Assembly: GCA_001275005.1 (NCBI GenBank) | Contig: JWZX01000910.1 | Location: 1-21,114 of the forward strand | From: Chrysochromulina tobinii | Taxonomy: Eukaryota > Haptophyta > Prymnesiales > Chrysochromulinaceae | Direction: 5' to 3' | Length of the DNA stretch: 21,114 bases | Shown: positions 1,308 through 19,394 of the stretch, piece by piece | How positions within the stretch are numbered: the first letter of the stretch is position 1 | How the letters are laid out: each line of letters opens with the position of its first letter | Program-made: the position numbers and the translations under genes | The notes under the pieces: generated by a model | Seen by the model: the letters and a program-made list of their open reading frames with translations, nothing else | The model's database searches: none | What the model was told of the DNA's origin: nothing

Positions 1308-1947
1308 GAGCCAACACCTGTAAGCCTCGCCTGATCATGACGTCTTCCCGCATGAACGAAGCTGTCACACAGTAGCGTAGGTCGCCGCAGTTCGCATATT
1401 TTCCCATGGCTTATCCATGGGCTTATCCCTACCGCGTTCGTCTCGGCTACATGCATCATGCTCGGCTACGAGGAGGAGGGTTCGCCAAAAGGAGCTCTAA
1501 GACGCGTAACCGATTCCGCTCCGTGTGCATTGTCCGTGCGTTACATGTGAATTGTAAAGGCCCAGCACTTTGCACTTTGCAAGCCGCACCAGGCAAGCCG
1601 ATCATGGCCGATCAGATTTTCAATTGCAGATTTCATGAGATAAAAGCCCGGCCGACTTTCAGATGCACTCTTAATGCACTCGGCGGTCGGGGGCGCCATC
1701 GTCGCTCCCGTCGTCGCTCTCGCGCGCGATGGTCGCAGACATTAAGGCCAGGGCGATACCGTGGGGATCCTTAGGTTCTTAGATCGGGAAGTTGGGAAGA
1801 TTTGCGTCCCCGAATCTCTTTGACTCTTTCCCACAGTGCGGTTCGACTCGGATCAATTTTCCCACACAAGAGCGCAAAGTCTCATGCGAAGCCGCATCTA
1901 GGTGTCCTATCCCGAGTACGAGCCACTCGCGGTGTGTCGCTGGCGAC
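1308..1947. other. Intergenic and 5' flank of PARP copy 1
   Basis: No convincing gene is seen; a 122-codon ORF at 1406-1774 is compositionally poor. A perfect 7-bp inverted repeat (CCCATGG/CCATGGG) lies around 1404-1423. A 30-bp block at 1732-1761 is identical to 8656-8685, upstream of PARP copy 2. Between that block and the ATG the two flanks share only patches (for example GAAGATTTGC near 1797). A CTTTCCCACAG string near 1827-1838 resembles a 3' splice site, so a 5'-UTR intron is possible. Confidence 0.4.
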
Positions 1948-4134: not shown

Positions 4135-4944
4135 GAGGCGGCCGGCGTCGACGCAGGCGGAGCTGATGATGGCGGCACCGGCGCCTCGTTCATGGATAGG
4201 AGTGCGCTCAATGCTGCATCCGCGTAGTCAAAGGGAAATGATCAATGCAGCTCTCGAGCGGCGTGGCCTCGGCGGTGGCAGCGGGAGAAGCGACGAGTCA
4301 CTCTGAGAGTGTGAATGTTGCCTCTTATGCGCTCGTCCGTGACGGAATCTGTATCCGAGTCTGTGTGTATCGGATCGCCTCGTGCGCGGCGCCCTCTTGT
4401 CGTGTGGCTTCGTTTCGCCGCGTCCAGGCTAGGGCGGAGTCGGGGGGCTGTTTATCTGCTGTCCATGCTGCTGTCCCACAGACTGTCTCGACAGACTGTC
4501 CGTCCACCGCGGTCTTGGGCTCTTGGCTGGTGCTCGTCGGGGGGGCGGTCGCCCAGACGCGAGACGGGCGACGGTAGGGACGGCAACGCCGACGGCGGGG
4601 CGTCGAGCGATTCGGGATCGGATTAGCCAGGTACGCCAAGAACGGAAACGGTACGGTAGCGGACGGCAACAGCACACGATGCCCGCGTTGGCCCGCGTCG
4701 TCGAAGTAGAATAGTAGATATGTTTATGGCAAACTCAAGTAAGTCCGACACGAATATCCGACACGAATACCTGATGAAGCTCTCTTGAGCAAGGACTTAG
4801 GGGTCTTTTTCGGACCAACTGTGGTCTTTTGACTCGTGTGAACCCTTTTTTTCTAACGAAAAGCCAGGACGTCGCACACCGTGCCACAAGCGGCGACTTT
4901 GGAAAATTTCCGAAAGTCTAGCACGAGTCAACTGTGGTCTTCAC
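4135..4944. other. Intergenic stretch; short repeats at the 3' end
   Basis: No supported gene; ORFs at 4245-4626 are overlapping and mutually exclusive and show no family features. A relatively AT-rich section begins near 4715. CAACTGTGGTCTT occurs at 4816-4828 and again at 4929-4941. TTGACTCGTG (4829-4838) is exactly inverted at 4922-4931, with a run of seven T's at 4846-4852 between. These may be promoter or 5'-exon elements of the downstream DUF6625 gene, whose true start is unresolved. Confidence 0.35.
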
Positions 4945-7093
4945 GTGAACGTTCGGAATCCGTGCAATTGCTCGTGGGCGTCGCGGGCGTGCGGCCGCGC
5001 GGACGGCTCTGCGTGCTGGCAGAGTTGCTGTGGGCCGAATGGTGAAGTGCGGACCCGTAAGCCACGGCCGCCGCCCAAGCACTCGGTGTGCTTGTTCGTG
5101 CTACGGTGGGGTGATTGGCCGCCGTGGGCGCCGCTGCTGCTGAGAACGATGGAGCTCAACCCTACCATCCGGTTCTTGCTCATGGGCGACGCCGCTCCGA
5201 GTGCGGCCTCGTGGCCGTCCAATTGCGCATTTCATCACGTCTCGTTGCGCATGCTGCTTCAGCGCGCGCGCTCGGCGCTCGGCGCGGCGCCGTCGAGCCT
5301 GCCTGTCGCAGGCTCAGCCTCCAAGGTATCCGATCTGAAGCCGATGCTCGCGCATCTGTATCCTGAGCTGCTCCAGGGCTGCGACTTTTGGGGGTGGATG
5401 CAGGAGGACCAGCTCCTGGGCGACCTGCGCGCCTTCCTCGACGAGCCTCTCCTCACCAATCACGACGTGATCTCGCCGCTCCCAGCTCCACTCTGGCACG
5501 CGGGACCCTTCATGGTCCTGCGGCACACGAAGCCGATCGACGCGCTGTACCGGCGCTCGACGCAGTGGCGCACCGTGCTTGCTGCGCCGGCGTACCTGGC
5601 CTTTGATGAGTGGTGGGGCGCTTCGCTCAAGGACCACATGCCCAAGGTGATGATCACGATGATCTTGATGGCCTCTGATGGCGACTGAATGAGCCTTGAT
5701 GGCCCCTGATGACGGACCACATGCCCAAGGTGATCGAGCGGAGGACCACTGGTGATCTTGATGGCCTCTGATGAACTCGAATAGCCTTGCTCGTCAGGTT
5801 TTTGAGCGGTGATTGCCTCTTGATGGCCTCTTGATGGCCTCGTGATTGCCCCGTGATGGCCTCTTGATGGCCTCTTGATGGCCTCTTGATGGCCTCTTGA
5901 TGGCCATGAACGTCCTCACGCATCGGGTTGTCGAGCGGCAGGCGGCCGCCAGTGCAGGAGGAGCACCTGATTGCACCTGATTTCATCTGATTTCACATGA
6001 TTGCAACTGATTGCACCTGATCGCACCTGATTGCATCCGTCATCAGGTTGTCGAGCGGGAGGCGGCCGCCGGCCGTCTCCGAGCGTACTCGGCGCAGCCG
6101 GAGACAGATGCGAAGGTCTGGCTCGTAGACGATTACATCTACGCGGCTCCGGAATCTACCGGTCCGAATGCGATGGGCGCCGTGATGGGCGCGTCCTCGA
6201 GCGGCGCTGCTGCGGCCAACGGCTATCACGGCGCCCATCACGGCGCTACCGCGGCCAACGGCTATCACGGCGCCCATCACGGCGCTACCGCGGCCAACGG
6301 CTATCACGGCGCCCATCACGGCGCTACCGCGGCCAACGGCTATCACGGCCAGCGACCGACGCCGGCGGTTCACGGCCGCGGCGCGCGTTGGGTGGGCTCG
6401 GCGCTCGATACGGCGCGTGGCGTGGCCAAGGAGGACGACCCCTTTCGAACGCAGCGCTGGTATGACGAAACGCTGCTCTTCTCGTGGCGACGTGGCGAGG
6501 ACGGCGTCGGGCGGCTCTGGGCTGGGCCTGGATCCGACGCGACGCGCACGCTGTGGGATGCGGAGCAGGGACAGCGCGCCGTGCTGCATTTGATGGCCTC
6601 GAAGCGCCTGCCGGCCTTCAGTGCGCTGCGGAATACCGAGCACCTGCGATCCATGGCGGCGCATGCATTGGAGTTCCATGTGACGAAACACGGGCTGTGG
6701 ATCAAGACGAGCCGATTAGGGAAGAGCCACACCTGGTTTGCGGGCGGTATGGGGTCAGCACACCTGCTGCTTCGGTCCGCCGACGTACGCCGCGCGATGT
6801 CTCAGATGATGCTCCTCGGCAAGCCGACGCCCGACACGACGCGTCGGTACGCGCGTCGCATGGAACGTTTGCTGCCGTGTGCGCATGCGGCGCGACGCGA
6901 CGATGGCAAGCGCCCGTTGCGCGCGTGTGCCGAGTGCCAGGGCGAGGGTGGAGCATCCTCGGCACGAGCGCGGCACGCGGCTTTCTCCAGCACCAAGCCG
7001 TTGACCAAGCCGTGCGACGTCATCAATGTGAGTGCGGTGCTGCCGCCCTTGTGCCGCCGCACCCTCTGCGCTGTGAGCGCGGCGCTGCAATAG
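4945..7093 (+). CDS. DUF6625 glycosyltransferase-like protein, two exons
   Basis: Exon 1 ends at 5646 (DHMPK) and exon 2 runs 6047-7093 (VVEREAAAG onward); both are phase 0. The frame is open from 4801 but has no ATG before the conserved core, so an upstream exon probably carries the start and 4945 is only nominal. Core features fit DUF6625, a GT-A-like sugar-transferase family: FVLRWGDWPPWAPLLLRTME...NPTIRFLLMGD at the N-terminus, SDLKPMLAHLYPELLQGCDFWG, then DQLLGDLRAFL, HDVISP, GPFMVLRHTKPIDALY and FDEWWG. Exon 2 adds a domain with HLMASKRLPAF and a His-rich repeat. Without exon 2's frame the protein would end inside the intron array at 5688. The role is probably in glycan synthesis; donor and acceptor are unknown. 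Confidence 0.7.
5647..6046 (+). repeat. Intron of the DUF6625 gene: TGATGGCCTCT array with nested exon-edge copies
   Basis: A 400-nt GT-AG intron (AAG|GTGATG ... CATCAG|GTTGTC). It contains runs of CTTGATGGCCT and, nested inside, a second copy of the donor-side exon (5714-5734 repeats 5631-5651). It also holds three acceptor-side copies: GTTTTTGAGCG after CAG at 5798, GTTGTCGAGCGGCAGG after CGG at 5927, and the functional one at 6047. Only the last continues into a long frame. Confidence 0.75.
6212..6346 (+). repeat. 39-bp in-frame tandem repeat, His-rich
   Basis: Three full and one partial copy of a 39-bp unit encode AANGYHGAHHGAT. The copies are essentially identical at DNA level, pointing to recent expansion. 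The peptide has three His per unit and could bind metal, but that is only a possibility. Confidence 0.9.
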
Positions 7094-7544
7094 AATATAG
7101 AATGACAGTTTAGGTTATCATATGCCGTCCCGTTCAAAAAGAGCTATTTCGAGCGGTAGTACGGGCAGCTGAATCCTGAAACCTGAATCACGATGACGTC
7201 CAATCATCGAATGTGCACTCGGTTATAGTACGCGCGCGACGTACAACGCTTCCTAGACGCATACTCCCCTCGTACTTCGGCGGCGACGGCAAACTAACTC
7301 CGATCGGCTGTTCACATACTCGTAGGAACTATCTTCCCTTCCTTGTGGGCACGCTGGTGATAGATGCGCCCGCAAGTGATGCACACGCAGATGCGCCCGC
7401 GCTCTGGACACGATTTTGTAGCCATGTCCAGGGGCTGCCGGCAGATCTCCTCCGGCAGATCTCCTCCGGCAGATCTCCTCCGGCAGATCTCCTCCGGCAG
7501 ATCTGCAGGCAGATCTCCTCCGGGCACTCGGCCGAGTGGTGGTT
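7094..7544. other. Convergent intergenic region with a 14-bp tandem repeat
   Basis: This lies between the 3' ends of the DUF6625 gene and the minus-strand Ank-FG gene. At 7441-7496 a 14-bp unit (GCAGATCTCCTCCG) is repeated four times head to tail, with a variant GCAGATCTGCAG at 7497 and one more copy at 7509-7523. Several overlapping ORFs across it are repeat translations, not genes. Confidence 0.5.
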
Positions 7545-8201
7545 TCAACGTCGAACGTGGCTAACACGATAACGACGAGGACCGTGTGCAGTCGCCTGGC
7601 CTGTAAGAAGGCGATGGAGAGGGTGCAACGGCCCGAAGCTGCTAGCGGCGGCCGGAGCGGCGCCAAAGGCCGGGGCGCCCCTAAGCATGCCGCCAGCGGC
7701 AGCGGGCGCGGCAGCTGGCACCGGTGTGCCTCCGAAGAGGACGGCAGCTGGCGCCGGCATGTCAGAGGCACTTTCGGCAACGATCTTGTCGATGGCACGG
7801 GATTCGAGAATATCGATTACATCATCAAACTGCTTGATGATACGTGCGATCGCTGCGTCGTCGGTGGGTGCTGGCTTTGCGATGAACATTCCTTGCCCCT
7901 CAAGCCAGCGCTTACGCTGCACCCTGGCTAGGTGCAACGCGGTGCACCCTTTCCGAGTAGCGCGGTGAAGATCTGCGCCCGCGTCTAGGAGCAGCAAGAC
8001 GCACTCTACGCTTGCATCGCGGGCGGCGATCATGAGAGGGTGTACCCCTTTGGGATTGGCACTATTGACGTCGGCGCCCGCCTCGATGGCCGATTGTAGC
8101 GCCGCCTCGTCCCCAGCTAGTGCAGCGTCGGCGACATCCCGAGCCAGTGCAGCGCCGTCGGCGACAAGCAACACGCGGTCTTGAAGACTTTCCGTGCACA
8201 T
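7545..8201 (-). CDS. Ankyrin-repeat protein with FG motifs
   Basis: 218 residues from the ATG at 8199-8201; the frame extends 23 codons upstream only to a TTG and includes CSHVQGSRASCAMC, so an upstream exon is possible. Two clear ankyrin repeats are visible: GVHPLMIAARDASVECVLLL-DAGADLH and GCTALHLA, preceded by DAALAGDEAALQSAIEAGADVNSAN. A charged helix follows (IIKQFDDVIDILESRAIDKIV). The tail is Ala/Pro/Gly-rich with three FG motifs (VLFGGTPVP, PAFGAAP, SSFGPL), as in FG nucleoporins. The final 25 residues are Arg-rich and unlike the rest. A pyrimidine-rich CTTCTTACAG at that point suggests an intron or frameshift, so the C-terminus is uncertain. It is head to head with the PARP-GLE1 fusion, which has the same Ank plus FG combination. 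Confidence 0.65.
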   Translation of the reverse strand: MCTESLQDRVLLVADGAALARDVADAALAGDEAALQSAIEAGADVNSANPKGVHPLMIAARDASVECVLLLLDAGADLHRATRKGCTALHLARVQRKRWLEGQGMFIAKPAPTDDAAIARIIKQFDDVIDILESRAIDKIVAESASDMPAPAAVLFGGTPVPAAAPAAAGGMLRGAPAFGAAPAAASSFGPLHPLHRLLTGQATAHGPRRYRVSHVRR

Positions 8202-8951
8202 TGCACACGACGCACGAGAGCCTTGGACATGCGAGCACAGTGCCCCAGGTGGAGCGCTTGACTTTGGCAAATGAGTGAAGCAAAAGAGGACGCCTCGAAA
8301 TCTATTTGGGGCAACTCCTGGCTCCTCCTTTCAGGTTGGTCACAGCAAAACCCAAACGCAATCATAAGCATCGATGACGAAAGAGATAGAGCTCGTTCGA
8401 CTCCGGCCGACGACTCATACTCAAAAACACCAACCTGTTTTGTTAATTTTGTAAATTCTCAAGAGCAACTCAAAACCTCAGTTTCGTCGCGGTCCCCCCA
8501 GTGAGGTCGGCCTCTCCCAGCACACCCGCGCGCACACAGGGTGACCCCTATGGAGTGTGCCGAGCAAGCAAGTTGTTTCGACAACTTAGCTTGCTTGCTT
8601 GTGCCGAGCAGATGTAATGAGATGACACCCCGGCTTTTCAGGTGCTCTCGGCGCCGTCGCAGACATTAAGGCCAGGGCGATACCGAGGGGCTCTTGGGAT
8701 TGGGAGAGCGGGTGGATGTACACGAAGATTTGCTTCCCCGTTTCCATGCGTTTCTCATCATGCTCCAACACAAATCCAATGCAAAATCCCACATGATCCC
8801 ACAGGAGCGGAAGTCGAGCACAAAAAACTCGCGAGGCAAACGTCGCCCCAGCCGCGGTGCGCAAGTCGAGCGCAAAGACGTAGGCGAAGTCTCAGCCGCA
8901 TCTATCGCCAGGCCCAAGAGTACGAGCCACTCGCGGTGTGTCGCTGGCGAC
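8202..8951. other. Divergent region between Ank-FG and PARP-GLE1 genes
   Basis: The region contains the two 5' flanks. The block at 8656-8685 is identical to 1732-1761. A hairpin-capable AGCAAGCAAGTTG..CAACTTAGCTTGCTTGC lies at about 8563-8600. The PARP frame is open back to 8694, with an alternative ATG at 8760 that would add 64 residues; copy 1 does not share that ATG. The reading frames at 8271-8504 have no recognisable domain. Confidence 0.4.
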
Positions 8952-11900
8952 ATGTCGGACTCCCCTTCGACTGCTGCGGTGCTTGCCTGCGTTCATGGCA
9001 ACGCCGAGGTACTTGGCGGTCTGGTGAGCTCCCGTGCCATCGATCCAGACGGCGCTGACCCTGCGAGCGGCAAGCGGTACTTGGTTGTGGCGGCGCAGCA
9101 CGGCCATACCACGTGTGTCCGTGGCCTGCTCCAGAGCAAGGCAAGCCCTGATACACACGATTCGCAAGGAGATACGCCGCTCTGCGTGGCCGCCTACTGG
9201 GGCCACGCAGACGTGCTGGACGTGCTCCTAGAGCATGGTGCCAATCCCAACGTGCGGACCCAGAACGGCGAGGCTGCTCTGCACCGGGCAGCCTACACGG
9301 GCTCCGCAGCTTGCTGCCGCATGCTGTTGGCAGCTTCGGCGGACATCACCGCGCGCGATGCCGAGGGCACGGCGCTCGAGATGGCCACACGCCACGGGCA
9401 CGACAGCTGTGCGGCCTTGCTCACCGCAGCCTGGATGCCTGATGCGCCCGTGACGCTCACCTTCGAGAACCGCTCGCCATGGCCCTTGGTGCTGTGCTAC
9501 CTGCTCCCCACCCCTGGGCTACCCGTCGGTCAAGCGTATACCCGCCCCCCCGAGCAGCGGACGGTGAGGCTCCCCTCCGGCGCCAAAAGGGTCTGCTCGA
9601 CATTCGCAGGGCACGAGTGGTACCTTCGGTCTGAGAGTGATGGCACGCTGCTCGACACGCACATGGTGCGGAGCCCCGGCGGCGCGCATCAACAGCATTG
9701 CATCTTCCCAAGCCTCGGGTGGGAATGGGAGGACGGGTCGCCTCAGAGCGGTCAGTGGCGCCAGTACGATCCCGAGCTGCTCCTGCGCCTCTTGCACGCG
9801 CATGCATCGGGCCACTCCATGCTCACTGTGCACGATCCTCCACGGGGGATCGACTACGAGATCAATCTGACGGATCGCACGCAGCGCAATACGCGCACGG
9901 GCTTCGTCCGGCGGCTGCGCGAAGTCCCGCCGCCGCCGCCACCGCCACCATCCGCCGCCGTACTCCTCGCCCCCGGCGCGCCACTCGCGCAACTCCGTGC
10001 CTTTCCTGGGGACTTACTTGCGCCTCCGCCGTACTGGAGCCAACCCGACAGCCAGGACGGTGCTGGCAGCAGCAGCAGCAGCTCCCCCCCCGTGGTGCAG
10101 CGGCTCACTTCGTGGGGGCTCCAGCGAGAGCTGCGTCCAGAGTCACCCGTCTTTCAAGAAGTACTCCAGATGCTTTGCGACTCCGGGACGGATCTGGCCT
10201 CGCTTCGCCTCTCGGCTATCTACTGCGTCGAGAACCGGGACTTCTTCCGCGAGTACCAGGCGCGTCGGACGACGATGCTAACCCGCCTCGGCCTTCCGCG
10301 ACTGAACGAGCGCTGGCTGTGGCACGGCACGGACGAGAAGTCAATCCCGCTCATCCTTGCCAATGGATTCTTGCGTGACTTCAACACGCGCGGCGCGCAT
10401 GGAAAGGGCGTGTACTTTGCCCGGCAGGCGGCGTACTCACTCTCGCCCAGCTACTCGAAGATCGACCCCAACACCGGCGAACACTGCCTCCTCCTGTGCC
10501 GCGTGCTCGTGGGCGAGGCATGCGAAGGCAGGTCAGGGATGGAGCGGCCCACACAGAAGCCAAACAGTAGCGCGTTGCACGAGAGCATGGTCGACCGGCT
10601 ACCTGTAGAGCAGAGCCAGATCGTCGTCCTCTCCGCAGGCAGCGACAAGCAGGCCTACCCCGAGTTTGTCCTCAAGTTCCAGAGCAGAGATGAAGGTGGC
10701 GCGTTTGGCGGCCGTCGCGGTGGCGGCCTATTTGGCGGCGGCTCTCCCTTTGGCGGGGTTGGAGGCAACGGTGGTGGAGGCGGCGGTGGCGGCGGCGGTC
10801 CCGGCGGCAGCGTATTTGGCAACGGCGGCCCCGGCTCTGCGTTCGGCTTTACGCCAGCGCCGGCAGCAACCGTCGGCGGCTTTACCTTTGGCCCGAGCGC
10901 CGTGCAAGCCGCCGGAGCGCACGCAGCTTTACCTTTCGGAGCAGCCTCCCCCCTCGCCACCGCTGCTCCAGCAGCGCCCGCCTTCGGCGGCTTCGCCGAT
11001 GCTCCAGCAGCCCTCCTCGCGGAGTGGGAGGGCTCGAAAGGCATTACGCTGCAGGACGAGACGCGCTCGAAGACGCATGCAAAGCTACAGTCGCAACTGG
11101 CCAAGATGCTTGTGAGGCAGGTCGTGTGCGTGCATTTCTTCGTTTGGGAGCGCGCCGAATTGGTGCTTCGCGAACTGGCCAGTGCATCGCAAACTGGCCC
11201 CGAGGGGGAGCGTGCCGTGTGTGCCACCATCGCCACGCAGGTGATCGATACCTGCGCGACGATGGTAGACAAGCAGCCGGGGATGGCGTACGCGCTGTCG
11301 GGCTTCGTGCTGCACGTGGGCGAGAGGTGCCCGGTGCTTTGGGAGTGCCTTCTCGCGCGCCTGCAGGCCTCGTGCTGCTACTGCGTCCCATACTACCCGG
11401 AAAAAACGACCGGCAACACGGACGAGTTTAAGAAGCGCCTTGGCTACACGCAGGGTGAGACCAAGAAGGACTTTTACGCGCGCATGGCGGGGTACGTGAC
11501 GCTGTACGCCGCGCTGCTTCAGCAGTCGTCGATTGCCCAATTCCCGCCGCAGTCGGCCGGAAACGCGCTTTTCGATAGGACCAGACCAGACGCAAAGATG
11601 CAGACGCGTCCAGTGCAAGGGGGCTTTGCACCCAAGGGGGTTTCGCCCATGGCGCGCGCATGGGCGTGGCTCGCCCGGCTGCTCAACCATCCGCCGGGGA
11701 ACATCACCGCGACCATCCTACTTGCGTTCCTCAAGCCGTGCGCGCGCGCGCTTTCACGCGCTTACCCCACGCAATTCTCGAAGCTTTTGAGCTTCCTCCA
11801 AACGACTTACTTAGCCAAAATCCGCGGCATGGTCGCTGGGCAAGGCAACCCGGCCGAGGAGGAAGCAGCCCGCGTGAACCTCGTGTCGTGGCTCACAGAC

Positions 11901-12011
11901 ACGAACGCCCTGCTTGCAAAAGGGGGCCGTGTCCCCGAGCCGAAAGAAGCTGATATGCCAGAGTACAAGCCGCCCGACGACCTGAGCGACACCAAGGGGA
12001 CTTTTGATTAA
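8952..12011 (+). CDS. Ankyrin-VHLbeta-WWE-PARP-FG-GLE1 fusion protein
   Basis: An uninterrupted 1,019-residue frame. Domains in order: ankyrin repeats 8-161; VHL beta-like 166-242, with H221 and W223 in GHEW at the place of the VHL His/Trp pocket residues and Tyr in place of the pocket Trp; WWE 256-323 (W257, W259, W269); Pro/Ser linker; PARP catalytic domain about 410-572 (H458, Y488, Q556). An FG/Gly-rich segment spans 578-690 (GGAFGG, GLFGGG, SPFGG, SVFG, AFGFTPAP, FTFGPS, LPFGAA, AFGGFA). The GLE1 domain covers about 695-1000: GLE1 hallmarks are RLGYTQGETKKDFYARMAGY, then WAWLARLLNHPPGNITATIL and YPTQFSKLLSFLQTTYL. GLE1 is the IP6-dependent activator of DEAD-box protein DBP5/DDX19 in mRNA export at the pore. 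I infer a pore-linked ADP-ribosyltransferase. The annotated end at TAA 12009-12011 may be one of two C-termini. Confidence 0.88.
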   Translation: MSDSPSTAAVLACVHGNAEVLGGLVSSRAIDPDGADPASGKRYLVVAAQHGHTTCVRGLLQSKASPDTHDSQGDTPLCVAAYWGHADVLDVLLEHGANPNVRTQNGEAALHRAAYTGSAACCRMLLAASADITARDAEGTALEMATRHGHDSCAALLTAAWMPDAPVTLTFENRSPWPLVLCYLLPTPGLPVGQAYTRPPEQRTVRLPSGAKRVCSTFAGHEWYLRSESDGTLLDTHMVRSPGGAHQQHCIFPSLGWEWEDGSPQSGQWRQYDPELLLRLLHAHASGHSMLTVHDPPRGIDYEINLTDRTQRNTRTGFVRRLREVPPPPPPPPSAAVLLAPGAPLAQLRAFPGDLLAPPPYWSQPDSQDGAGSSSSSSPPVVQRLTSWGLQRELRPESPVFQEVLQMLCDSGTDLASLRLSAIYCVENRDFFREYQARRTTMLTRLGLPRLNERWLWHGTDEKSIPLILANGFLRDFNTRGAHGKGVYFARQAAYSLSPSYSKIDPNTGEHCLLLCRVLVGEACEGRSGMERPTQKPNSSALHESMVDRLPVEQSQIVVLSAGSDKQAYPEFVLKFQSRDEGGAFGGRRGGGLFGGGSPFGGVGGNGGGGGGGGGGPGGSVFGNGGPGSAFGFTPAPAATVGGFTFGPSAVQAAGAHAALPFGAASPLATAAPAAPAFGGFADAPAALLAEWEGSKGITLQDETRSKTHAKLQSQLAKMLVRQVVCVHFFVWERAELVLRELASASQTGPEGERAVCATIATQVIDTCATMVDKQPGMAYALSGFVLHVGERCPVLWECLLARLQASCCYCVPYYPEKTTGNTDEFKKRLGYTQGETKKDFYARMAGYVTLYAALLQQSSIAQFPPQSAGNALFDRTRPDAKMQTRPVQGGFAPKGVSPMARAWAWLARLLNHPPGNITATILLAFLKPCARALSRAYPTQFSKLLSFLQTTYLAKIRGMVAGQGNPAEEEAARVNLVSWLTDTNALLAKGGRVPEPKEADMPEYKPPDDLSDTKGTFD

Positions 12012-12039
12012 CATCCGTGACCTGGTCGCTGGGCTAGAG
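11832..12039 (+). other. Candidate nascent optional intron in the GLE1 gene
   Basis: Within the coding frame, ATG|GTCGCTGGGCAAGGC at 11832 is repeated 208 bp later as AG|GTCGCCGGGCAAGGC at 12040. Removing 11832-12039 as GT...AG keeps the frame and swaps the last 59 residues for the diverged second copy, ending at a TAG at 12343-12345. The donor GTCGCT is weak. It has the same direct-repeat-at-both-ends form as the established introns here. Confidence 0.35.
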
Positions 12040-12207
12040 GTCGCCGGGCAAGGCAACCCGGCCGAGGAGGAAGCAGCCCGCGTAACCTTCAAGTCGTGGC
12101 TCAAAGACATGAACGACCTGCTTGCAAAAGGGGGCTGTGTCCCCGAGCCGAAAGAGGCTGATATGCCAGAGTACAAGCCGCCCGACGACCTGAGCGACGT
12201 CAAGGGG
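12013..12207 (+). repeat. Tandem duplicate of the GLE1 gene 3' coding end
   Basis: Positions 12013-12207 repeat 11820-12000 with roughly 90% identity and one 14-15-bp insertion. The copy is still open in its own frame (AGQGNPAEEEAARV...KPPDDLSD). Its substitutions give replacements such as NLVSWLTDTNALL to TFKSWLKDMNDLL, with no stop codons. It is either an alternative terminal exon or recent 3' debris. Confidence 0.8.
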
Positions 12208-12665
12208 GCGCGGGGGGGGGCGAGGGGGGCAACTTTTAATAACGGGGGGGGAGTGGTCGAGAGCTTGTGCATGAGGTGTAAGGATATGTACATGGAACTG
12301 TACAGCGCTGTGCTGTGTAGCCGGTCAGCCCGCGGTCGCGGGTAGGAGCGTCGAGACGCGCCCGTTGCATTACCGTTGCATTAAGAAAGTGCATTAAGTA
12401 ATTGAAACCGCCGCCACCTCCGCACGCCAACGTGGACGGTCGGACGGCGTCGTCCGTCGAGACGCCGCCCTTGCCACACCGCGCCGATCGACGAACGATA
12501 ACGGGGGTTGCGGGCCGGGGGCATGCCTCGAGGCAATTCGTCCTCGGCTCTTGATTTTAGATTTACGCACTGGCTGACCGCACCACGCTTCCGTTCTCGC
12601 TTAGGGTAAAAAGTGAGGGCATTCGTGGCGTAAAACGGTAAAAGTTCATCCGGACACTCCCTACT
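12208..12665. other. Convergent intergenic region
   Basis: It lies between the 3' ends of the GLE1 fusion and the SANBR-like gene. It opens with G-runs (12205-12251) that could form G-quadruplex structure. CCGTTGCATTA is repeated head to tail at 12362-12372 and 12373-12383. No gene is seen. Confidence 0.4.
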
Positions 12666-15600
12666 TCAAGGGCGGCGCCTCTCGCTGGCTGGCGGCTTGC
12701 CGCCGCCGAGCACGTACTCCAGACTCTTGGGCCAGAGGACGCTGCTCACCTGCCAATCAGAGGTCATCGGGAGGACAATCAGAGGTCATCAGAGGACGCT
12801 GCTCACCTGCCGGTCCGAAGGGCCATCAGAGGTCATCAGGAGGACAATCATAGGTCATCAGAGGACGCTGCTCACCTGCCGGTCCGCGCCCGTGCGCGTC
12901 ACGTTCATGATCTCGCGCGGATGGAGGAAGAAGTAGCGTGCGCCCATCTGAGCCGCAGGCCGATCGGTTGGCGGCGGCTCTGATCTCAGACCCTCGAGCA
13001 TCCTCTCCATCACTCGCATCGCGTGTTGATCCTCTGCCATCAAGCTCTCCATTTGCCATCCACGGCCGCTGCCGCCGTCGCGCCCGCCGCCGCCCACCGC
13101 CCGCCCGCCGGCGCCTTCGCGATGGGAACCGCCGGCTGCACCGGCTCGTCCGTCCGTGTCAGAATCCGAGGCGCTCACCTGTGGGGAAGAGGGGGGGGTG
13201 GCGCCGTGGTGAGCACTGGCATGCAAGGTCGGCTCGCCCCGTCCGTGTCGGGATCCGAGCCCGCAGAGCCTACCGATGAGTCCGAATCAGAGAGATGTCA
13301 TCAGGGAGGTCATCAGGGGTCATCAGGGGTCATCAGGCAGAGCCTACCGATGAGTCCGAATCGGAGACGGAGACGTCGTCGGCGGGATTGCGCTCGTCAT
13401 CAGAGAGATCCTCGCCATTGCGCGCCGCGGCCATCATCCCACTGCCACCGCCGCCGCCACTCGCGCCACTGCTGCTTCCGCCGGCGCCGCCCGCTCGCTT
13501 CTTCTTGCGCGCCTTGCCGCTGCCCGATCGTCCCTTGGTGCTCGCATGGCTGTACTCGAGAGTCACCAGGGATCATCAGAGGTCATCATGGGCCATCAGG
13601 GGTCATCAGGGATCATCAGGGATGTCATCAGGGAGGTCATCATTGGTCATCAGGGGTCATCATCGGCACTCACCTCCCTTCGGAGAGAGCGGCGGCAAGT
13701 CGATGGAGATCGTCGAGCTCAGCGGTGTCGTCGTCGAAGGCGGAGGCAAGGGCAGTGCCTTCGGCCTTGGACGCTGCCGCCGCCGTCAGAAGCGCGGCTT
13801 TCCAACCGCCGCCGCCGCTCTTGCCTCCGCCTGCCGCGTCCACTGCCGCCTTCCAGCCTTTTACCGGCACGCCCCCAGCGGCCTCGGCAGCGGCATCGGC
13901 AGCGGTGTCGGCAGTGTTGCCGCTGACCAGCACGAGCTCCGTATGCGCCAGCGCCGTATCGAGCACCTGCATGCAATGAGGGAGGCCATCAGTGGCGATC
14001 GGAGGCGTGAGCGTGGGCGCCGTATCGAGCACTTGCATGCAATCAGGAAGGCCATCAGAGGTCATCAGAGGTCATCAGGGGCGTGAGCGTGGGCGCCGTT
14101 CCGAGCACCTTGGCTGCCGCCTTGGCCGCCTCGGCCGCGGCCGCAGTACAGCCGAGAGGCGGGCGGATGAGAGGAGTATGGCGACGGTGCTGACAGCCCC
14201 TGGCGCGCTGATCGGCGGGTGCCTCGAAGCGAGTCGCTGGCTGATGGCAGCAGGGAAAGTGACCTCGCGCCTCCGCCTTTTCGAAGACTGGCTCGAGGGG
14301 GTGGAACGAACACCTACGGGAGGGTGGGGGGAGATCAGAGGTCATCAGGAGGGTAATCAGAGGTCATCAGGAGGGTAATCAGAGGTCATCAGGAGGGCAA
14401 TCAGAGGTCATCAGGAGGGCAATCAGAGGTGAACAGGAGGGCAATCAGAGGTCATCAGGAGGGCAATCAGAGGTCATCAGGAGGGCAATCAGAGGTCATC
14501 AGGAGGGCAATCAGAGGTCATCAGGAGAGCAATCAGAGGTCATCAGGAGGGCAATCAGAGGTGAACAGGAGGGCAATCAGAGGTCATCATCCGGGCTCGA
14601 GTGGGCGGGGCGCCGTGACCGGCGCGCCGTGGCGGGCGCGCACATGTCGAGCTCGCACACGGGGAAGGCGCTGTCACACGTCGAACAGGTAAGGAAGTGG
14701 GTGAGTCCCCACAGCCGCCAATAGGCTTCGCGACTGCCGCCCTTTGCCCGTCGGACCGTCGCGACCCACCGATGCACGTCCCATTGGCGGTTGGGCACAT
14801 GCTCGGCGATCACGTTGCCACGGAAGTCGAGCAGTGGCGGCGCGCGAGGGCATTGCTCCCAGTTGCGCTGGGCGGGCGTGAAGATCCGACTGCAGAATGC
14901 GCACCTGATGAAGGAGGCAATCAGAGATCCTCAGTGGCACTCAGAGGAGGGATGTGAAGATCCGACTGCAGAAGGCGCACCTGATGAAAAGCGCACTCAG
15001 AGGGCACTCAGGGGGCACTCAGAGGCCCATCTGATCGTAATAAGAAGCCACTCAGAAGCACTCAGAGGGCACTCAGAGGCATTCATGAGGGCCGATCGGT
15101 AGAGGGTGCGGAGCGGGCACCGGTGCAGCGTGTTCGCCTCATCAGCGAGGTGCGCCTCGAGCTTCCGTGTGTACAACCTCGACGCGATCTTGTCCTTCTT
15201 GTCGCGCAGCCTCTCGATCTCGTCCGCCTCGAGATGAAGCGCAAGCTCGCCGAGCAGATTGTCCGAGACGCAGCTCAGGTCGATCGGGAGGCGAAGCACT
15301 TCAGCGAGGGCTCCGCGGAGGAACTCGATGCAGTGCTTCGTCAGCGGCTTCATCTGTAGGAAATCCGCCGAGATGAGCACCGAGATCACCGAGCCCGCAT
15401 CGAGGATGGGCGGCTTGGCCGGCTGATGAATGTACTCCATCAACCATTCGAAGATGTGCACGTCGCAGTGGACGGAGATGTCGATCTCATCGACGCGCCG
15501 ATCGTCGCCCAAATATGGAGCAAAGTAGGCCATGTGCTGCGGCAGCAGGAGCGAGCTCGTGCGAGCAATCAGAGGTCATCAGAGGGCATCCGGTGCCATC

Positions 15601-16172
15601 AGGTGCCATCAGGAGTCATCAGGAGTCATCAGGTGTCATCAGAGCTCATCACCTGCAGCACTCAGTGGCCATCAGGTGCCATCAGGTGTCATCAGAGCTC
15701 ATCACCTGCAGCACTCAGTGGCCATCAGGTGTCATCAGAGCTCATCACCTGCAGCACTCAGTGGCCATCAGGTGCCATCAGGTGTCATCAGAGCTCATCA
15801 CCTGCAGCACTCAGTGGCCATCAGGTGTCATCAGAGCTCATCACCTGCAGCAGGAGCTCGCGCGAGCAATAGAAATCTCGATTGATCCTTCGGTTATCGT
15901 CGCACACATGGATCACGATCACGTCGTCCTTCCGATGGTCATTCCGATCGGAGGGGGCGCTCAGTCGAGCGCCGTCGTGGGCGCGCGCGCCGGCAGCGAT
16001 GGTGGGGCTGCGTGGCTGGGAAGGACCCGAGGCGGCGCCCGAGACGGCGCCCGTGACGGTGCCTGCCGACGGCGTCACGCTCGATCGCACGGCGCTGCCA
16101 CCGCACGCCGTTGCCATGCCACAGCTGCCGACGCCGCCAACGCCCCCAATGCTGCCGCCGCCTCCGCCGCCT

Positions 16173-16207
<35 letters not shown>

Positions 16208-16302
16208 CGCATCATACTCGATGGCAGCCGCACTGCACTCCGGCACATACGTCCGTGGCGCCGTGCCGGGCACCGTGCCGTTCGCGTCGTCATCGCCGCC
16301 GC

Positions 16303-16333
<31 letters not shown>

Positions 16334-16912
16334 GCCCGCATCATCACCGTCGCGGCTGAGCGTGGCACGGAGGGTAGGCCTGCTCGTGGGCGCCGCGGCT
16401 CCTGGTTGCTGTGCAGAAGGCCCCGGCGCTGTCGCTGGCGGCGCGCTCGCCGCACGTGGAGCGCCCGGGCCAGCGCCCGGCGCCATCGTGGGCACTGGCG
16501 CCACCACGGACGGCGCTGTCGCGGGCGGCGCGCTCGCTCGGGGTGGAGCTTCCGGGGCTCCGATGCTGGCGGTGTCGCGGGCGCCGCCTTGCCGCCCCGC
16601 TGCCGCTGCCGCTGCAAAGCCAGCGAGGATGGCCGCCGGATTCGCGCCGCCGTTTGGGATGCCCATATTTGGGATGCCGTTCGGCATGCCCATAGTTGGG
16701 ATGGTCGAGCTTCCGGCATGGGAGCGCGCCTGTCGAGCTTCCGGCATGGTTGACTTGTTGCCTGCGATGTACAGTGAGGCGGTGGCGTCAGCGCGCGCAG
16801 ACGGCGGGCCGGGCTGCGCCGGCGGCGGGCGCGCCGCAGCCGCCGTCCAGGTGGACGGGCCGCCCTCGACGCGTCGAGACGGCCCGGCCGAGGACGCTCG
16901 CGTCGGGCGCAT
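12666..16912 (-). CDS. SANBR/KIAA1841-like BTB-domain protein, eight exons
   Basis: Exons: 16912-15845, 15536-15121, 14904-14644, 14313-14109, 13966-13674, 13549-13348, 13178-12876, 12749-12666; about 943 residues. Frame is kept at every junction. Residues 1-330 are low-complexity (poly-Gly, Ala, Pro). A BTB domain crosses intron 1: VIVIHVCDDNRRINRDFYC then MAYFAPYL...VDEIDISVHCDVHIFEWLMEYI, followed by VISVLISADFLQM and LRDKKDKIASRLYTRKLE. Exons 3-4 carry a Cys/His-rich region: CAFCSRIF, WDVHRWV, YWRLWGLTHFLTCSTCDSAF, CSFHPLEP, FPCCHQP. A Lys-rich and acidic tail and a GWQMESLMAEDQ helix follow. This order matches human SANBR after its BTB start; I see no SANT domain. In animals SANBR represses class-switch recombination through corepressors; here its role is unknown, probably nuclear. 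Confidence 0.85.
12750..12875 (-). repeat. SANBR-like intron 7, with an internal donor/acceptor copy
   Basis: 126 nt, GGCAG|GTGAGC to GGCAG|GTGAGC. GTGAGCAGCGTCCTCTG opens the intron, recurs in its middle after CCGGCAG, and opens exon 8. CTGATGACCTCTGATTGTCC units fill the rest. Confidence 0.8.
13179..13347 (-). repeat. SANBR-like intron 6, with a duplicated exon edge
   Basis: 169 nt, TCATCG|GTAGGC to CCCCACAG|GTGAGC. The string GATTCGGACTCATCGGTAGG occurs at the donor and again inside the intron. The second copy is followed by a diverged copy of exon 7's start (CTCGGATCCCGACACGGACGG), and CTGATGACCCC units lie between. Confidence 0.75.
13550..13673 (-). repeat. SANBR-like intron 5
   Basis: 124 nt, GGGAG|GTGAGTG to GTACAG|CCATGC, filled with CTGATGACCCC/CTGATGATCCC units. 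No clear exon-edge copy is visible, so this may be the oldest or most eroded of the set. Confidence 0.7.
13967..14108 (-). repeat. SANBR-like intron 4, three copies of the exon-5 start
   Basis: 142 nt, GCCAAG|GTGCTC to TGCAG|GTGCTC. GTGCTCGGAACGGCGCCCAC opens the intron, a second copy (TGCTCGATACGGCGCCCAC) lies inside after CATGCAAG, and exon 5 opens with GTGCTCGATACGGCGCTGG. Confidence 0.8.
14314..14643 (-). repeat. SANBR-like intron 3, 22-bp tandem array
   Basis: 330 nt, GACAT|GTGCGC to CCGTAG|GTGTTC. At 14333-14590 a 22-bp unit (sense strand CTGATTGCCCTCCTGATGAC plus CT) repeats about eleven to twelve times with few differences. Two units carry the same TGTTCACC variant, showing higher-order duplication. 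Confidence 0.85.
14905..15120 (-). repeat. SANBR-like intron 2, with a decoy copy of the exon-3 start
   Basis: 216 nt, CACCG|GTGCCC to CATCAG|GTGCGC. CATCAG|GTGCGCCTTCTGCAG occurs 76 bp upstream of the true acceptor (exon-like start at 14980) but runs into a stop. CTGAGTGCCCT units fill the donor half. Confidence 0.8.
15537..15844 (-). repeat. SANBR-like intron 1, with repeated AG|GT sites
   Basis: 308 nt, CTGCTGCAG|GTGATGAG to GCCGCAG|CACATG. The donor sequence TGCAG|GTGATGAGCTC recurs four times inside, with junctions at 15801/15802, 15748/15749, 15705/15706 and 15652/15653, spaced alternately 43 and 53 bp. The intron's 3' end copies the upstream exon's end (TTGCTCGCACGAGCTC versus TTGCTCGCGCGAGCTC). 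Confidence 0.85.
16142..16343 (-). repeat. GGC-triplet tracts coding poly-glycine in SANBR-like exon 1
   Basis: Two runs of CCG/CCT triplets on the plus strand (about 16147-16209 and 16292-16338) encode runs of about 20 and 10-plus Gly residues in the minus-strand protein. They are length-variable microsatellites in coding DNA; plus-strand poly-Pro is a shadow. Confidence 0.85.
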
Positions 16913-17116
16913 GGCTCCCGCTGCGCAGGCTTCGGTGTTGTAATGTATGAATACGGGCAGCGCTCACCTTTCACCAAGTGTGAAGACAAAGAAAAGGATT
17001 TCCATGAATTCGTTTCTTGGGAACAGATCATAGCGACTTATCACAATCAAGGTGGCGACCGTAAGACGCTTCGTCGATTCAAGAAAACTAGGATCCCGAC
17101 AGGGGAGGATCCCGAT
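16913..17116. promoter_or_regulatory. Divergent upstream region of the SANBR-like and plastid genes
   Basis: It is markedly less GC-rich than its flanks and is bounded by the start codons of two divergent genes, if the downstream gene starts at 17117 as argued. It contains an in-frame ATG at 16943, which would leave only 30 bp between start codons. No specific element is identified. Confidence 0.35.
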
Positions 17117-17896
17117 ATGCTCGTGCTCGTGTCGCCGCTGTTGCTCGCGCTCCTACGGGAGGCTGCGGGCGTGCCGTTGCGCGTTCGAGTGCAGTCCCCG
17201 ACCATGAAGCTTCCGAGCTCAGTCGCTGCAGTCGTGCCCGAGGCCGTGCGTGACCTACCGGTGACTGAGGCCAATTGGAAGGCGGTTCGCAGCTGCTTTC
17301 CCACAGAGGAGGCTGCAGCGAATGCCGTGAAGCTCAACAATGCAATTTTGCTGCCGTACGGCTTCGACGCATCCAACCGCGCCGCAAACATAGCGGGCAG
17401 CTACAAGGTGCTGCGGGAACTGCTTCAGGACGAGGGCGAGGTCCTCGAGATCATCACGAAGAATCCTGGCGTGCTCGGGTGCGTGCCTGCGGAGCTGGCC
17501 AAATCCGACGCGAACACCATCCGCATGGCAGCGGGCTTCGTCTCGGGCGTCGATTCCGTGCTGGGGCCAGCAAAGAGCTTCCTGACCGGCCTTGGTTGGT
17601 GGGACGAGAAGACCAAGGGCGTGCTCGTCGACGGTCAGCTGCGCGCGGTGGACACGAGCGCGGGAGCCGAGGAGAGCTCGCTCGCCGAGCTCGAGCTCGA
17701 AGAGATCGAGCTCGAAGGAGAGACCTTCCTCTTCGATGCGAATGGCCTGTACAATGGCGAGAAGAACTTGCTTTTGGCGCAGCGCGGTGAGGAGTGGGAC
17801 GCAGATCTTGCAAAGGCGCGCCCGGTGTGGGTGCCGTTCGGCACCTGGGATCCCGAGACGCAGTTCTTGGAAGAGTATGAGGAGGTGGATGAATGA
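17117..17896 (+). CDS. Conserved algal protein of unknown function, probably plastid-targeted
   Basis: The frame is open from an ATG at 16943, but I prefer the ATG at 17117 (259 residues). It begins MLVLVSPLLLALLREAAGVP, a good signal peptide followed by a basic/Ser-rich transit-like stretch, and the preceding 174 bp are compositionally non-coding. The core (NWKAVRSCFPTEEAAANAV, then LPYGFDASNRAANIAGSYKVL and ITKNPGVLGCVPAELAKSDA) resembles a repeat-like domain of algal plastid proteins with a KNPGVL motif reminiscent of mTERF repeats; I do not assign it there. The C-terminus is acidic and ends EEYEEVDE. It is single-exon. The next gene starts 51 bp downstream on the same strand and also carries a presequence. 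Confidence 0.65.
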   Translation: MLVLVSPLLLALLREAAGVPLRVRVQSPTMKLPSSVAAVVPEAVRDLPVTEANWKAVRSCFPTEEAAANAVKLNNAILLPYGFDASNRAANIAGSYKVLRELLQDEGEVLEIITKNPGVLGCVPAELAKSDANTIRMAAGFVSGVDSVLGPAKSFLTGLGWWDEKTKGVLVDGQLRAVDTSAGAEESSLAELELEEIELEGETFLFDANGLYNGEKNLLLAQRGEEWDADLAKARPVWVPFGTWDPETQFLEEYEEVDE

Positions 17897-17947
17897 AAAA
17901 ACGTCGTCTATCCTACGCGTCGTCTCGAGCTTTTTGGTACTTTCCGA

Positions 17948-19394
17948 ATGCCGCAGACCTTCTACGTCGCCGTACTCCTCCTCACCGCCTGCGCTGCTCC
18001 AGCAGCTATCCGATCGAAATTTGCTGTCTTCCGACGCCAGCCTGCTTGCAGCGCGAGGACGTCCTATATAGCGGGCAAGCTCACTTTCGCTGATCGGAAG
18101 GCGTTGCTCGAGGAAGAACAGGTGACGCGACTATTTGCGTGGGTGACCTGCGCCTTCCGCGGAGATGAGCGCTACAATGACTTGAGAGCGGCATTTACCG
18201 CGATTTTTAGCGACAATCCTGGGCCGCGTCTCACACAACTCCTGGCCGACGCCATGAAGATGTGCCCTCGAGAGGATGAGGCAGTCGGAGAGCCCTTCCA
18301 GCTCGCCGACCGAGTGCAAGCGTCCTTGGGTGCGATGGGCGCAGCGCAGTGGACTGGCCGATTCAAAACCCGGCCGCACGCCCTGTTGGATGTACGCGAA
18401 CTCAACGACGTCGATGAGTGGAGGCAACGGCTATCGCGTGGCGCACGTCGCACGCTTGCCAAGGCCGACGCGCAGGTTCAGAACTTTGCAGTGACGCTCC
18501 GACCCATCCGCGGCGGAGAACCGGCGCCGCACTCGTCGCTTGCGTGCTTTCGTGCGGTGTGCGCGCACGAGGTTCGGTTGCTTGCTGACGACGCCGACGA
18601 CGTGCTCGAGGCTCTGTCCGTCGCGATCAGTCGTTACATCGGGACGACTCGCATGGCGGGCGAGGTGAGAGTATACCGCGACGCGACGACCACTGATGAC
18701 GTTTGATTGCCATTCATCGCCTCCCTCATCAGGTACGAGAGTACCGCGACGTGCGCACCGGGCGTGTCGTCGCGATCGCGCACGAGGTAGCGAAGGGAAT
18801 GCTCGAATGACCTCTGATGACCTCTGATGACTTCTGATGACTTCTGATGACATCTGATGGCCTCTGATGGCCTCTGATGGCCTCTGATGGCGGTGATGGC
18901 CTCTGATGGCGGCCTCTAATTGCCTCCCTCATTAGGTTGTGAAGGGGAGAGTCCTTCGAGGGCAATGGTTCTATTGCGACGACGATGCGGCGCGCCAGTT
19001 TGTGTGGTTCCAGGCCGTCACGGCTCTGGTGGCGCGTGCGATCGAGGACGAGCGGATCGACGTAGTCGACCTCGGGCCTAGCGGCTCGGATGCCTTCACG
19101 GAACTTAAGGAGCGCTACGGATTCGTCACTGTGACCTCTTGATGAATGCTGATGATGATTGATTGTATCCCTAAGTAGGAGCGCTACGGATTTGTCACTG
19201 TGGAGGACTGGACGAGTGTGGCCTCTTGATGAATGCTGATGATGATTGATTGTATCCCTCATCAGGAGCGCTACGGATTTGTCACTGTGGAGGACTGGAC
19301 GAGTGTGGCCAAATATGAGGGTCCGTTCCACTTTTCGCTGGGCGAGAGGCCAAGTGAGCAGCTCACAGGATGGCTGGCAGCTCTCGGCAGTTGA
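17948..19394 (+). CDS. GNAT/FemAB-like acyltransferase, five exons, plastid presequence
   Basis: Exons 17948-18664, 18733-18786, 18936-19130, 19179-19217 and 19266-19394, all phase 0, give about 377 residues. The N-terminus (MPQTFYVAVLLLTACAAPAA then RSKFAVFRRQPACSARTS) looks like a signal plus plastid transit peptide. The body fits an acyl-CoA N-acyltransferase fold: LLDVRELNDVDEWRQRLSRG, SLACFRAVCAHEVRLL, EYRDVRTGRVVAIAHEV, RGQWFYCDDDAARQFVWFQA, and IDVVDLGPSGSDAFTELKERYGFV near the C-terminus. Substrate unknown. Exon 4 (ERYGFVTVEDWTS) duplicates the end of exon 3 and the start of exon 5, so the spliced protein would carry ERYGFVT three times. Without splicing at 18665 the frame stops in the array at 18706. 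Confidence 0.75.
18665..18732 (+). repeat. Acyltransferase intron 1, direct-repeat ends
   Basis: 68 nt, GAG|GTGAGA to CATCAG|GTACGA. The intron starts GTGAGAGTATACCGCGACG and exon 2 starts GTACGAGAGTACCGCGACG, clearly copies. The middle is CTGATGACGTTTGATTGCC. Confidence 0.8.
18787..18935 (+). repeat. Acyltransferase intron 2, CTGATGACCT array
   Basis: 149 nt, GAG|GTAGCG to CATTAG|GTTGTG. A run of 10-bp units CTGATGACCT/CTGATGGCCT lies at about 18810-18900. The intron start GTAGCGAAGGGAATG resembles exon 3's start GTTGTGAAGGGGAGA. Confidence 0.8.
19131..19178 (+). repeat. Acyltransferase intron 3, 48 nt
   Basis: ACT|GTGACC to AAGTAG|GAGCGC. It is nearly identical to the 48-nt intron at 19218-19265 and has GATGAATGCTGATGATGATT in its middle. 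It is very short for a spliceosomal intron; the donor is weak. Confidence 0.6.
19218..19265 (+). repeat. Acyltransferase intron 4, 48 nt, twin of intron 3
   Basis: AGT|GTGGCC to CATCAG|GAGCGC. The first six bases GTGGCC equal the continuation of exon 5 after the same AGT, so the repeat unit is exon segment plus intron (87 bp). Confidence 0.65.

What the first reader, a model, noticed from the sequence alone, without database searches (positions are those of the whole stretch)
5647..19265. Introns bounded by exon-edge direct repeats: signature of intron birth by tandem duplication
In three unrelated genes I resolve 12 introns. Most start with GT plus a copy of the next exon's first bases (17 identical bases in SANBR-like intron 7; clear copies in its introns 4 and 6 and in acyltransferase introns 1 and 2). 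SANBR-like intron 1 instead ends with a copy of the upstream exon end. This is what duplication of an AG|GT-containing exon segment leaves behind, as in the tandem genomic duplication model, here with repeat arrays grown in between. Graded divergence suggests several ages in one window.
Basis: partly seen in the sequence, partly recalled or inferred. Interest (0 to 1): 0.88.

Follow-up and report, generated by a model that had tools for sequence, protein, structure and literature searches.

The report
New introns from inserted mobile fragments
In this unnamed single-celled organism, short repeated DNA fragments appear to have inserted into many genes, each time copying a stretch of the gene so that the insert can be cut out of the message as a brand-new intron.

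Summary
The exon-edge repeats are real and occur genome-wide, but simple tandem duplication is mostly not the cause. The window's 53-Mb genome holds dispersed short elements: family 2, about 42 nt (1,172 core copies), and family 1, TGATGACC-type arrays ending CTGATTGCCTCCCTCATCAG (643 exact ends). The element carries the acceptor; a 15-47 nt copy of the downstream exon in front of it carries the GT donor. In 20 clean family-2 copies the duplication starts exactly at the splice junction (identity 0.10-0.30 at -10 to -3, 1.0 at GT), which the AGGT tandem-duplication model does not predict. Intact family-2 ends are followed by GT in 92 of 101 cases (background 5%). Coding frames agree across 19 of 22 junctions. 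Relatives' single-ORF proteins read through at least four of seven SANBR-like junctions, and two paralogues through the DUF6625 one. I read these as introner-like elements with unusually long, variable, junction-anchored target duplications. Two families obeying one rule hint at a splicing-linked insertion route (inferred). A minority, such as the last SANBR-like intron, does look like tandem duplication. There were no RNA data, and the organism is unidentified.

The parts
5149..5646 (+). DUF6625 gene, exon before intron A1
   Evidence: Pfam PF20330, 73.9 bits
5647..6046 (+). Intron A1 (GT...CATCAG, family-1 type arrays). Holds partial exon copies: 5714-5734 copies 5631-5651, and 5921-5950 copies 6041-6070
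   Evidence: Direct repeats; frame restored on splicing; two paralogues align without a break across the site
15537..15844 (-). SANBR-like intron B1; ends with a copy of the upstream exon end (mirror-image case)
   Evidence: BTB_SANBR 99.6 bits over profile 1-97 when spliced, 74.5 bits over 22-97 for the downstream exon alone; edge test
14905..15120 (-). SANBR-like intron B2; 14954-14988 copies the exon start region 14878-14912
   Evidence: Direct repeat; homologues continuous
14314..14619 (-). SANBR-like intron B3 (donor uncertain; homologues favour an earlier one)
   Evidence: Edge test; homologues lack about 8 residues kept by this donor
13967..14108 (-). SANBR-like intron B4, starts with a copy of the downstream exon
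   Evidence: Edge test; homologues continuous
13550..13673 (-). SANBR-like intron B5, no exon-edge copy found
13179..13347 (-). SANBR-like intron B6, complex: internal exon copy (13263-13293 repeats 13337-13367) and a family-2 element at its end
13179..13224 (-). Family-2 element in B6 (GCATGCCA-GTGCTCACCACGGCGCC...CCCCACAG)
   Evidence: Read; core with 2 mismatches
12750..12875 (-). SANBR-like intron B7; exon junction segment present three times (12733-12754, 12790-12811, 12859-12880) with AGGT inside the repeat: tandem-duplication type
18665..18732 (+). Acyltransferase-like intron C1, starts with a copy of the downstream exon
   Evidence: Edge test; nine homologues continuous across the junction
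18787..18935 (+). Acyltransferase-like intron C2, weak copy
19110..19265 (+). Acyltransferase-like intron C3 with GA donor (AAG|GAGCGC...CATCAG|GAGCGC); exon segment 19108-19133 repeated at 19177 and 19264
   Evidence: homologues show no extra residues here

Best explanation
Most of these introns are introner-like insertions. A short dispersed element carrying a branch-point-like CTNAY motif (recalled consensus), a pyrimidine tract and the 3' AG sits directly before a G|GT (sometimes G|GC or G|GA) in an exon. A 15-47 nt copy of that exon, starting exactly at the splice junction, lies in front of the element. The first exon copy supplies the donor and fills the intron out to 68-93 nt; the element supplies the acceptor; splicing restores the frame. 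Tandem arrays and further local duplications grow inside some of them. Shown: structure, copy number, junction anchoring, frame agreement, read-through sites. Inferred: that the copies are spliced in the cell, that they moved as units, and that a joining or nicking event at G|GT followed by loose second-end repair makes the duplication.
For: Family-2 core 1,172 copies against 3 for the reversed pattern; family-1 end 643 against 0. GT follows 92 of 101 intact family-2 ends and 425 of 643 family-1 ends, background 5.2%. Flank alignment score >=36 in 25 of 40 against 1.6% of 774 shuffled pairs; 21 of 37 with >=14/16 against 0.15% of 1,332. Identity steps from 0.10-0.30 to 1.0 at the junction in 20 clean copies; element 37-52 nt, aligned duplication 15-47 nt; same step in 24 family-1 copies. 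Frames agree in 19 of 22. Read-through sites in paralogues and relatives.
Against: No RNA evidence. 12 of 37 family-2 loci show no copy at >=12/16, and 3 of the 25 that pass at 12/16 do not align at the donor; 2 unique loci have no acceptor within 40 nt. 9 of 20 clean copies have 6 or more unaligned bases between duplication and element. 218 of 643 family-1 ends are not followed by GT. Frame agreement fails in 3 of 22 (5 of 22 with 60 nt). Mirror-image and AGGT-internal cases exist.
Confidence: 0.8

Rival explanations
1. Tandem genomic duplication of an AGGT-containing exon segment, with repeat arrays grown in between, is the main route.
For: Window intron B7 and L028:4247 have AGGT well inside the repeat. 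The model is established for single cases elsewhere (PMC4974935, passages).
Against: No identity above chance upstream of the junction in the clean copies of both families; the rest of the intron is a dispersed element.
Confidence: 0.07
2. Ordinary transposon-like introners insert at random positions; only insertions whose edge falls at G|GT survive in genes, so the anchoring is survivorship and not a property of insertion.
For: Selection must remove unspliceable copies from coding sequence. A few copies lack the GT edge or the element's 3' end: L049 and L061 among the 40 and L024 plus strand 1623.
Against: G|GTRNG is only 0.22% of positions yet GT follows 28 of 37 acceptor-bearing copies in a sample picked by core alone, so neutral copies elsewhere seem too few. 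I could not classify copies as genic or intergenic, so this is not settled. Reported introner duplications of DNA-transposon type are 3-9 bp, not 15-47.
Confidence: 0.25
3. Target-primed retro-insertion: an RNA ending in AG is copied into a nick at G|GT, and the second strand is cut at a variable distance, giving one fixed and one variable edge.
For: One precise edge and one variable edge is the pattern recalled for LINE-type insertion. This is a possible route for the best explanation, not an alternative structure.
Against: Two families with different sequence share the rule. No partner enzyme was searched for.
Confidence: 0.3
4. Repair of staggered double-strand breaks captured filler DNA and left direct repeats of variable length.
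For: Variable direct repeats are expected of gap filling in this model (PMC3443670, passages).
Against: The filler is the same few families, GCATGC stands at the expected 5' end in 18 of 20 clean copies, and the other edge is always at the junction there.
Confidence: 0.1

Closest known systems
Introners that carry the 3' splice site and take the donor from the target duplication (Symbiodinium type; Gozashti et al. 2022, PMC9860276; passages and section 7 read)
   Same: Dispersed element, acceptor carried by the element, donor taken from the duplicated target; GC and GA donors also reported
   Different: Duplications there are described as 3-9 bp; here 15-47 nt, variable, and starting at the splice junction. 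No terminal inverted repeat seen by eye in family 2
Introners of Chrysochromulina sp. (Tara MAG; PMC9860276 figure legend)
   Same: Possibly a related alga; dispersed introners with target duplications
   Different: 4 bp duplications; the element carries the donor and takes the acceptor, the reverse of here
Introner elements of Amoebophrya (PMC7789003, passages)
   Same: Introns with direct repeats at exon boundaries and many non-canonical splice sites
   Different: Direct repeats there are 3-5 nt with 8-20 nt inverted repeats; here the repeats are long and donors are mostly GT
[quoted passage not shown] passages)
   Same: Direct exon repeats around the new intron; protein unchanged after splicing; fits B7 and L028:4247
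   Different: In most copies AGGT is at the edge, not inside, and the intron body is a dispersed element
Direct repeats near intron borders (Rogers and Bendich 2025, PMC11782384; outline and abstract)
   Same: Direct repeats at or near exon/intron borders, read as insertion traces
   Different: Mean 11.4 bp in 213 assorted introns; here longer, junction-anchored and tied to named element families

Membership tests
Introner element | Many near-identical dispersed copies in one genome | tested here: met
   1,172 family-2 cores and 643 family-1 ends, controls 3 and 0
Introner element | Copies lie in introns within coding genes | tested here: met
   Frames agree in 19 of 22; 28 of 37 acceptor-bearing loci are followed by GT. 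Splicing itself not observed
Introner element | Intron presence differs between relatives | tested here: met
   Shown for window genes, at protein level; not for individual family-2 loci outside the window
DNA-transposon-type introner | Short duplication (3-9 bp) | tested here: not met
   15-47 nt aligned in 20 clean family-2 copies; 11-63 nt in 21 family-1 copies
DNA-transposon-type introner | Terminal inverted repeats | tested here: inconclusive
   By eye none in family 2 (GCATGCAA against CCCCACAG); family-1 5' ends are not defined; no dedicated search run
Tandem genomic duplication | AGGT lies inside the duplicated exon segment | tested here: not met
   Upstream identity at chance in clean copies; met only for a few such as B7 and L028:4247
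Tandem genomic duplication | Intron body consists of exon copy | tested here: not met
   37-52 nt dispersed element in each clean copy
Introner element | Splicing shown by RNA | not testable with these tools
   No reads available
Target-primed retroelement | Reverse transcriptase and RNA intermediate | not tested
   No search for a partner enzyme was run

The most novel reading that the evidence does not exclude
The elements spread by a splicing-linked route. The free 3' end of an intron tail is joined to exon DNA or an R-loop at a cryptic donor (a partial, second-step reverse splicing). The gap is then filled from the upstream side for 15-50 nt before synthesis switches onto the element. This would explain why two families share the exact G|GT edge, why the other edge varies, and why copies sit at donor-like sites. 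Mirror-image cases (B1, L036:2852, L028:4493) would be the first-step equivalent.
Probability: 0.2. Interest if true: 0.95.

Novelty: new variant of a known kind. Interest (0 to 1): 0.74.

Why it matters
How new introns arise is a long-standing question, and most known cases are few or too old to read. Here many insertions still show both edges, in two element families, in a genome whose relatives lack at least some of the introns. A long duplication fixed at the splice junction tells insertion models apart in a way that 3-9 bp duplications cannot. It also suggests why a search for whole introns that resemble each other could miss such families: in the clean set only about half of each intron is shared element.

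Tried and rejected
Annotation-free tetramer tests for AGGT inside direct repeats were inconclusive, because arrays and whole duplicated segments enrich many tetramers (AGGT ranked 22nd, 3rd, and 61st/23rd on the two sides). Open-frame counts across junctions were uninformative in this GC-rich sequence (17 of 23 spliced, 19 of 23 unspliced, 14 of 23 shifted by one), so I used codon-usage frame agreement. Pfam on nine spliced fragments: five had no family; Ion_trans and a sub-threshold FkbM match cover their junctions; two had EF-hand matches below cut-off. DUF6625 coverage did not extend past its intron after splicing and its score fell from 73.9 to 71.7 bits. Scanning viral contigs with a 17-mer of the family-2 core gave 14 single hits, 13 without element context; one (L090) carries a family-2 copy at its end. 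The family-1 22-mer gave none. Organism: 63.7% GC in 200 kb and 53 Mb recall Chrysochromulina tobin (59 Mb, 63.4% GC; PMC4580454, passages), but three protein searches listed no near-identical named entry, so I leave it unnamed.

In print: searches for 'introner' (67 papers, 40 listed), 'introners'+'haptophyte' (3), 'intron gain'+'target site duplication'+'splice site' (8) and 'Chrysochromulina'+'introner' (2) showed no report of long junction-anchored duplications in titles, abstract starts or the passages I read. The library is open-licence PMC only and supplements could not be opened, so the tables of PMC9860276 were not checked.

Full report
Setting. The window is contig C306 of a 53.15 Mb, 2,253-contig eukaryotic genome held as G000. 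Twenty evenly numbered contigs (C10 to C200, first 10 kb of each; L021-L040) have 63.7% GC. The three genes are a DUF6625 gene (+), a SANBR-like BTB gene (-) and an acyltransferase-like gene (+) whose only Pfam match, FemAB_like, is far below threshold.

Window introns. I resolve 11 introns. The seven-intron SANBR-like model gives one frame that stays open from before the BTB domain to a final stop. With intron B1 removed BTB_SANBR scores 99.6 bits over profile 1-97; the downstream exon alone scores 74.5 bits over 22-97. The three acyltransferase-like junctions are continuous in 9 of the 11 homologues I aligned, four of them from transcriptomes; the other two (P0001, P0002) read into intron C1 as the window does. 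Exon-edge copies exceed the control at the intron start in 5 of 11 and at the intron end in 1 of 11. A1, B2 and B6 hold internal copies; C2 is weak and B5 has none.

From the window to the genome. In the 20 stretches a scan for non-array direct repeats 40-700 nt apart gives 45 rows, of which L024 and L028 hold 19, and 6 stretches hold none (I printed 34 of all 55 rows, window included). Many enclose a shared filler. Two filler families stand out. Family 2 has 1,172 cores at up to 2 mismatches against 3 for the pattern read backwards. Family 1 ends in CTGATTGCCTCCCTCATCAG, 643 exact copies against 0.

Forty family-2 copies. I took 40 of the 100 listed exact core matches, one or two per contig, skipping close neighbours and without regard to flanks. 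In 25 of 40 the flanks align with score >=36, against 1.6% of 774 shuffled pairs. L051 repeats L044 and was dropped, leaving 39; 37 have an acceptor within 40 nt of the core. What follows it is GT in 28, GC in 5, GA in 2, CG in 1 and AG in 1. A 16-nt copy with >=14 identities is found in 21 of 37 against 0.15% of 1,332 mismatched pairs; with >=12 it is 25 of 37 against 2.2%, three of those 25 not aligning at the donor. Among the 25, intron length is 68-94 in 23, and 130 and 146 in two. Codon-usage frames judged separately on each side agree in 19 of 22 at 90 nt and 17 of 22 at 60 nt; chance is one third, p = 4e-7 for 19 of 22.

The edge. For 20 of the 21 best copies (L054, a compound locus, left out) the identity between the two flanks is 0.10-0.30 at -10 to -3, 0.55 at -2, 0.85 at -1 and 1.0 at GT. 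The duplication thus begins at the splice junction and aligns for 15-47 nt (median 28). The element is 37-52 nt (median 42) and shows GCATGC at its expected 5' end in 18 of 20. In 9 of 20 there are 6 or more unaligned bases between duplication and element. For family 1, 61 ends with AG|G[TCA] were examined in L002-L005, L008-L012, L014-L017, L019-L020, L021-L040 and the window (overlapping loci L001, L006, L007, L013 and L018 left out). 32 have a copy of >=13/16; 8 of these follow another CATCAG-type end and were set aside. The other 24 show the same step: 0.12-0.42 at -10 to -3, 0.71 at -1, 0.83-1.0 from the junction on. Aligned lengths are 11-63 nt (median 24) in the 21 whose alignment starts at the junction; three start 9-30 nt further in. 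L002-L020 had been found by similarity to the window's arrays.

Genome-wide GT. Intact family-2 ends are followed by GT in 92 of 101, family-1 ends in 425 of 643, against a background of 5.2%. Requiring an intact end favours working introns, so the sample picked by core alone (28 of 37) is the fairer figure. The duplicated site resembles a donor: G at -1 in 19 of 25, purine at +3 in 23 of 25, G at +5 in 19 of 25.

Gain rather than loss. Two DUF6625 paralogues (33% and 38% identical) align without a break at the A1 site. For the SANBR-like gene I aligned 14 of 47 hits. Single-ORF proteins read through B1 in 12, B2 in 12, B3 in 12 and B4 in 11; B5 and B6 lie in poorly conserved stretches and B7 aligns only loosely. 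P0164 (97% identical over the matched part) reads into intron B1, as expected for the same or a sister species. P0145 (86% over 21% of the query) reads through B1 and loses homology at a place where the window has no intron, as expected of genomic DNA with an intron of its own there. P0126 and P0133 cover the gene from before B2 to its end in one frame. Some records may come from RNA, so these sites are strongest where the record also shows an unspliced intron.

What it is. Exon G|GT-copy, element, AG|GT-exon with a dispersed element is the layout of an introner that takes its donor from the target duplication. Such duplications are described as 3-9 bp (PMC9860276, section 7), and Amoebophrya repeats as 3-5 nt (PMC7789003, passages). 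Here they are several times longer, variable and fixed at the junction. The copy may be needed: an element of about 42 nt alone is shorter than any intron of the clean set (68-93 nt).

Mechanism. A fixed edge at G|GT and a loose other edge point to joining or nicking at the future splice site, then imprecise second-end repair. Two families that differ in sequence (by eye) obey the same rule, so the rule may belong to intron 3' ends or to donor-like targets. Random insertion with survivorship predicts mostly neutral copies elsewhere, since G|GTRNG is about 0.2% of positions. I could not sort copies into genic and intergenic or count antisense ones, so targeting is inferred. Mirror-image cases (B1, L036:2852, L028:4493) and AGGT-internal cases (B7, L028:4247) suggest more than one route.

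Verdict. Most of what I could test is better explained by introner-like insertion with long junction-anchored duplications; tandem duplication fits a minority.

Noticed in passing
19110-19265; L024 minus strand near 4464; L028:4641: Insertions whose duplicated target starts with GA or GC instead of GT (C3 AAG|GAGCGC; L024 CAG|GAGCGC; L028 CAG|GCGCGC), suggesting that GA and GC donors are used.
   Followed up: partly
13967-14108 with exon start at 13966 (minus strand): Intron B4 ends in TTGCATGCAG and the exon begins GTGCTCGATACGGCGC; together they resemble the start of the family-2 element (GCATGCAA-GTGCTCACCACGGCGC). Family 2 may have arisen from an intron end plus exon start of this kind, or it may be chance.
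   Followed up: no
L024, L028 against L023, L025, L034, L035, L037, L040: Repeat-flanked insertions are clumped: two of 20 stretches hold 19 of 45 rows and six hold none.
   Followed up: no
1783-4026 and 8670-12011 (plus strand): Two tandem, very similar ankyrin-WWE-PARP genes; the second continues into a GLE1-like domain (Pfam run on the second). Both read as long single ORFs.
   Followed up: no
L090:4340-4554: A 4.6-kb IMG/VR contig ends in a family-2 element and a short TGACGAACCC array between two near-copies of an exon-like segment, beside phage-like or bacterial-like ORFs; probably a chimeric contig holding a relative's intron.
   Followed up: partly
Intron arrays of the window, e.g. 12750-12875 and 14314-14619 (minus strand): The TGATGACCTC array units each contain CTGAT, a branch-point-like motif (recalled), so the arrays may be rows of potential branch points.
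   Followed up: no
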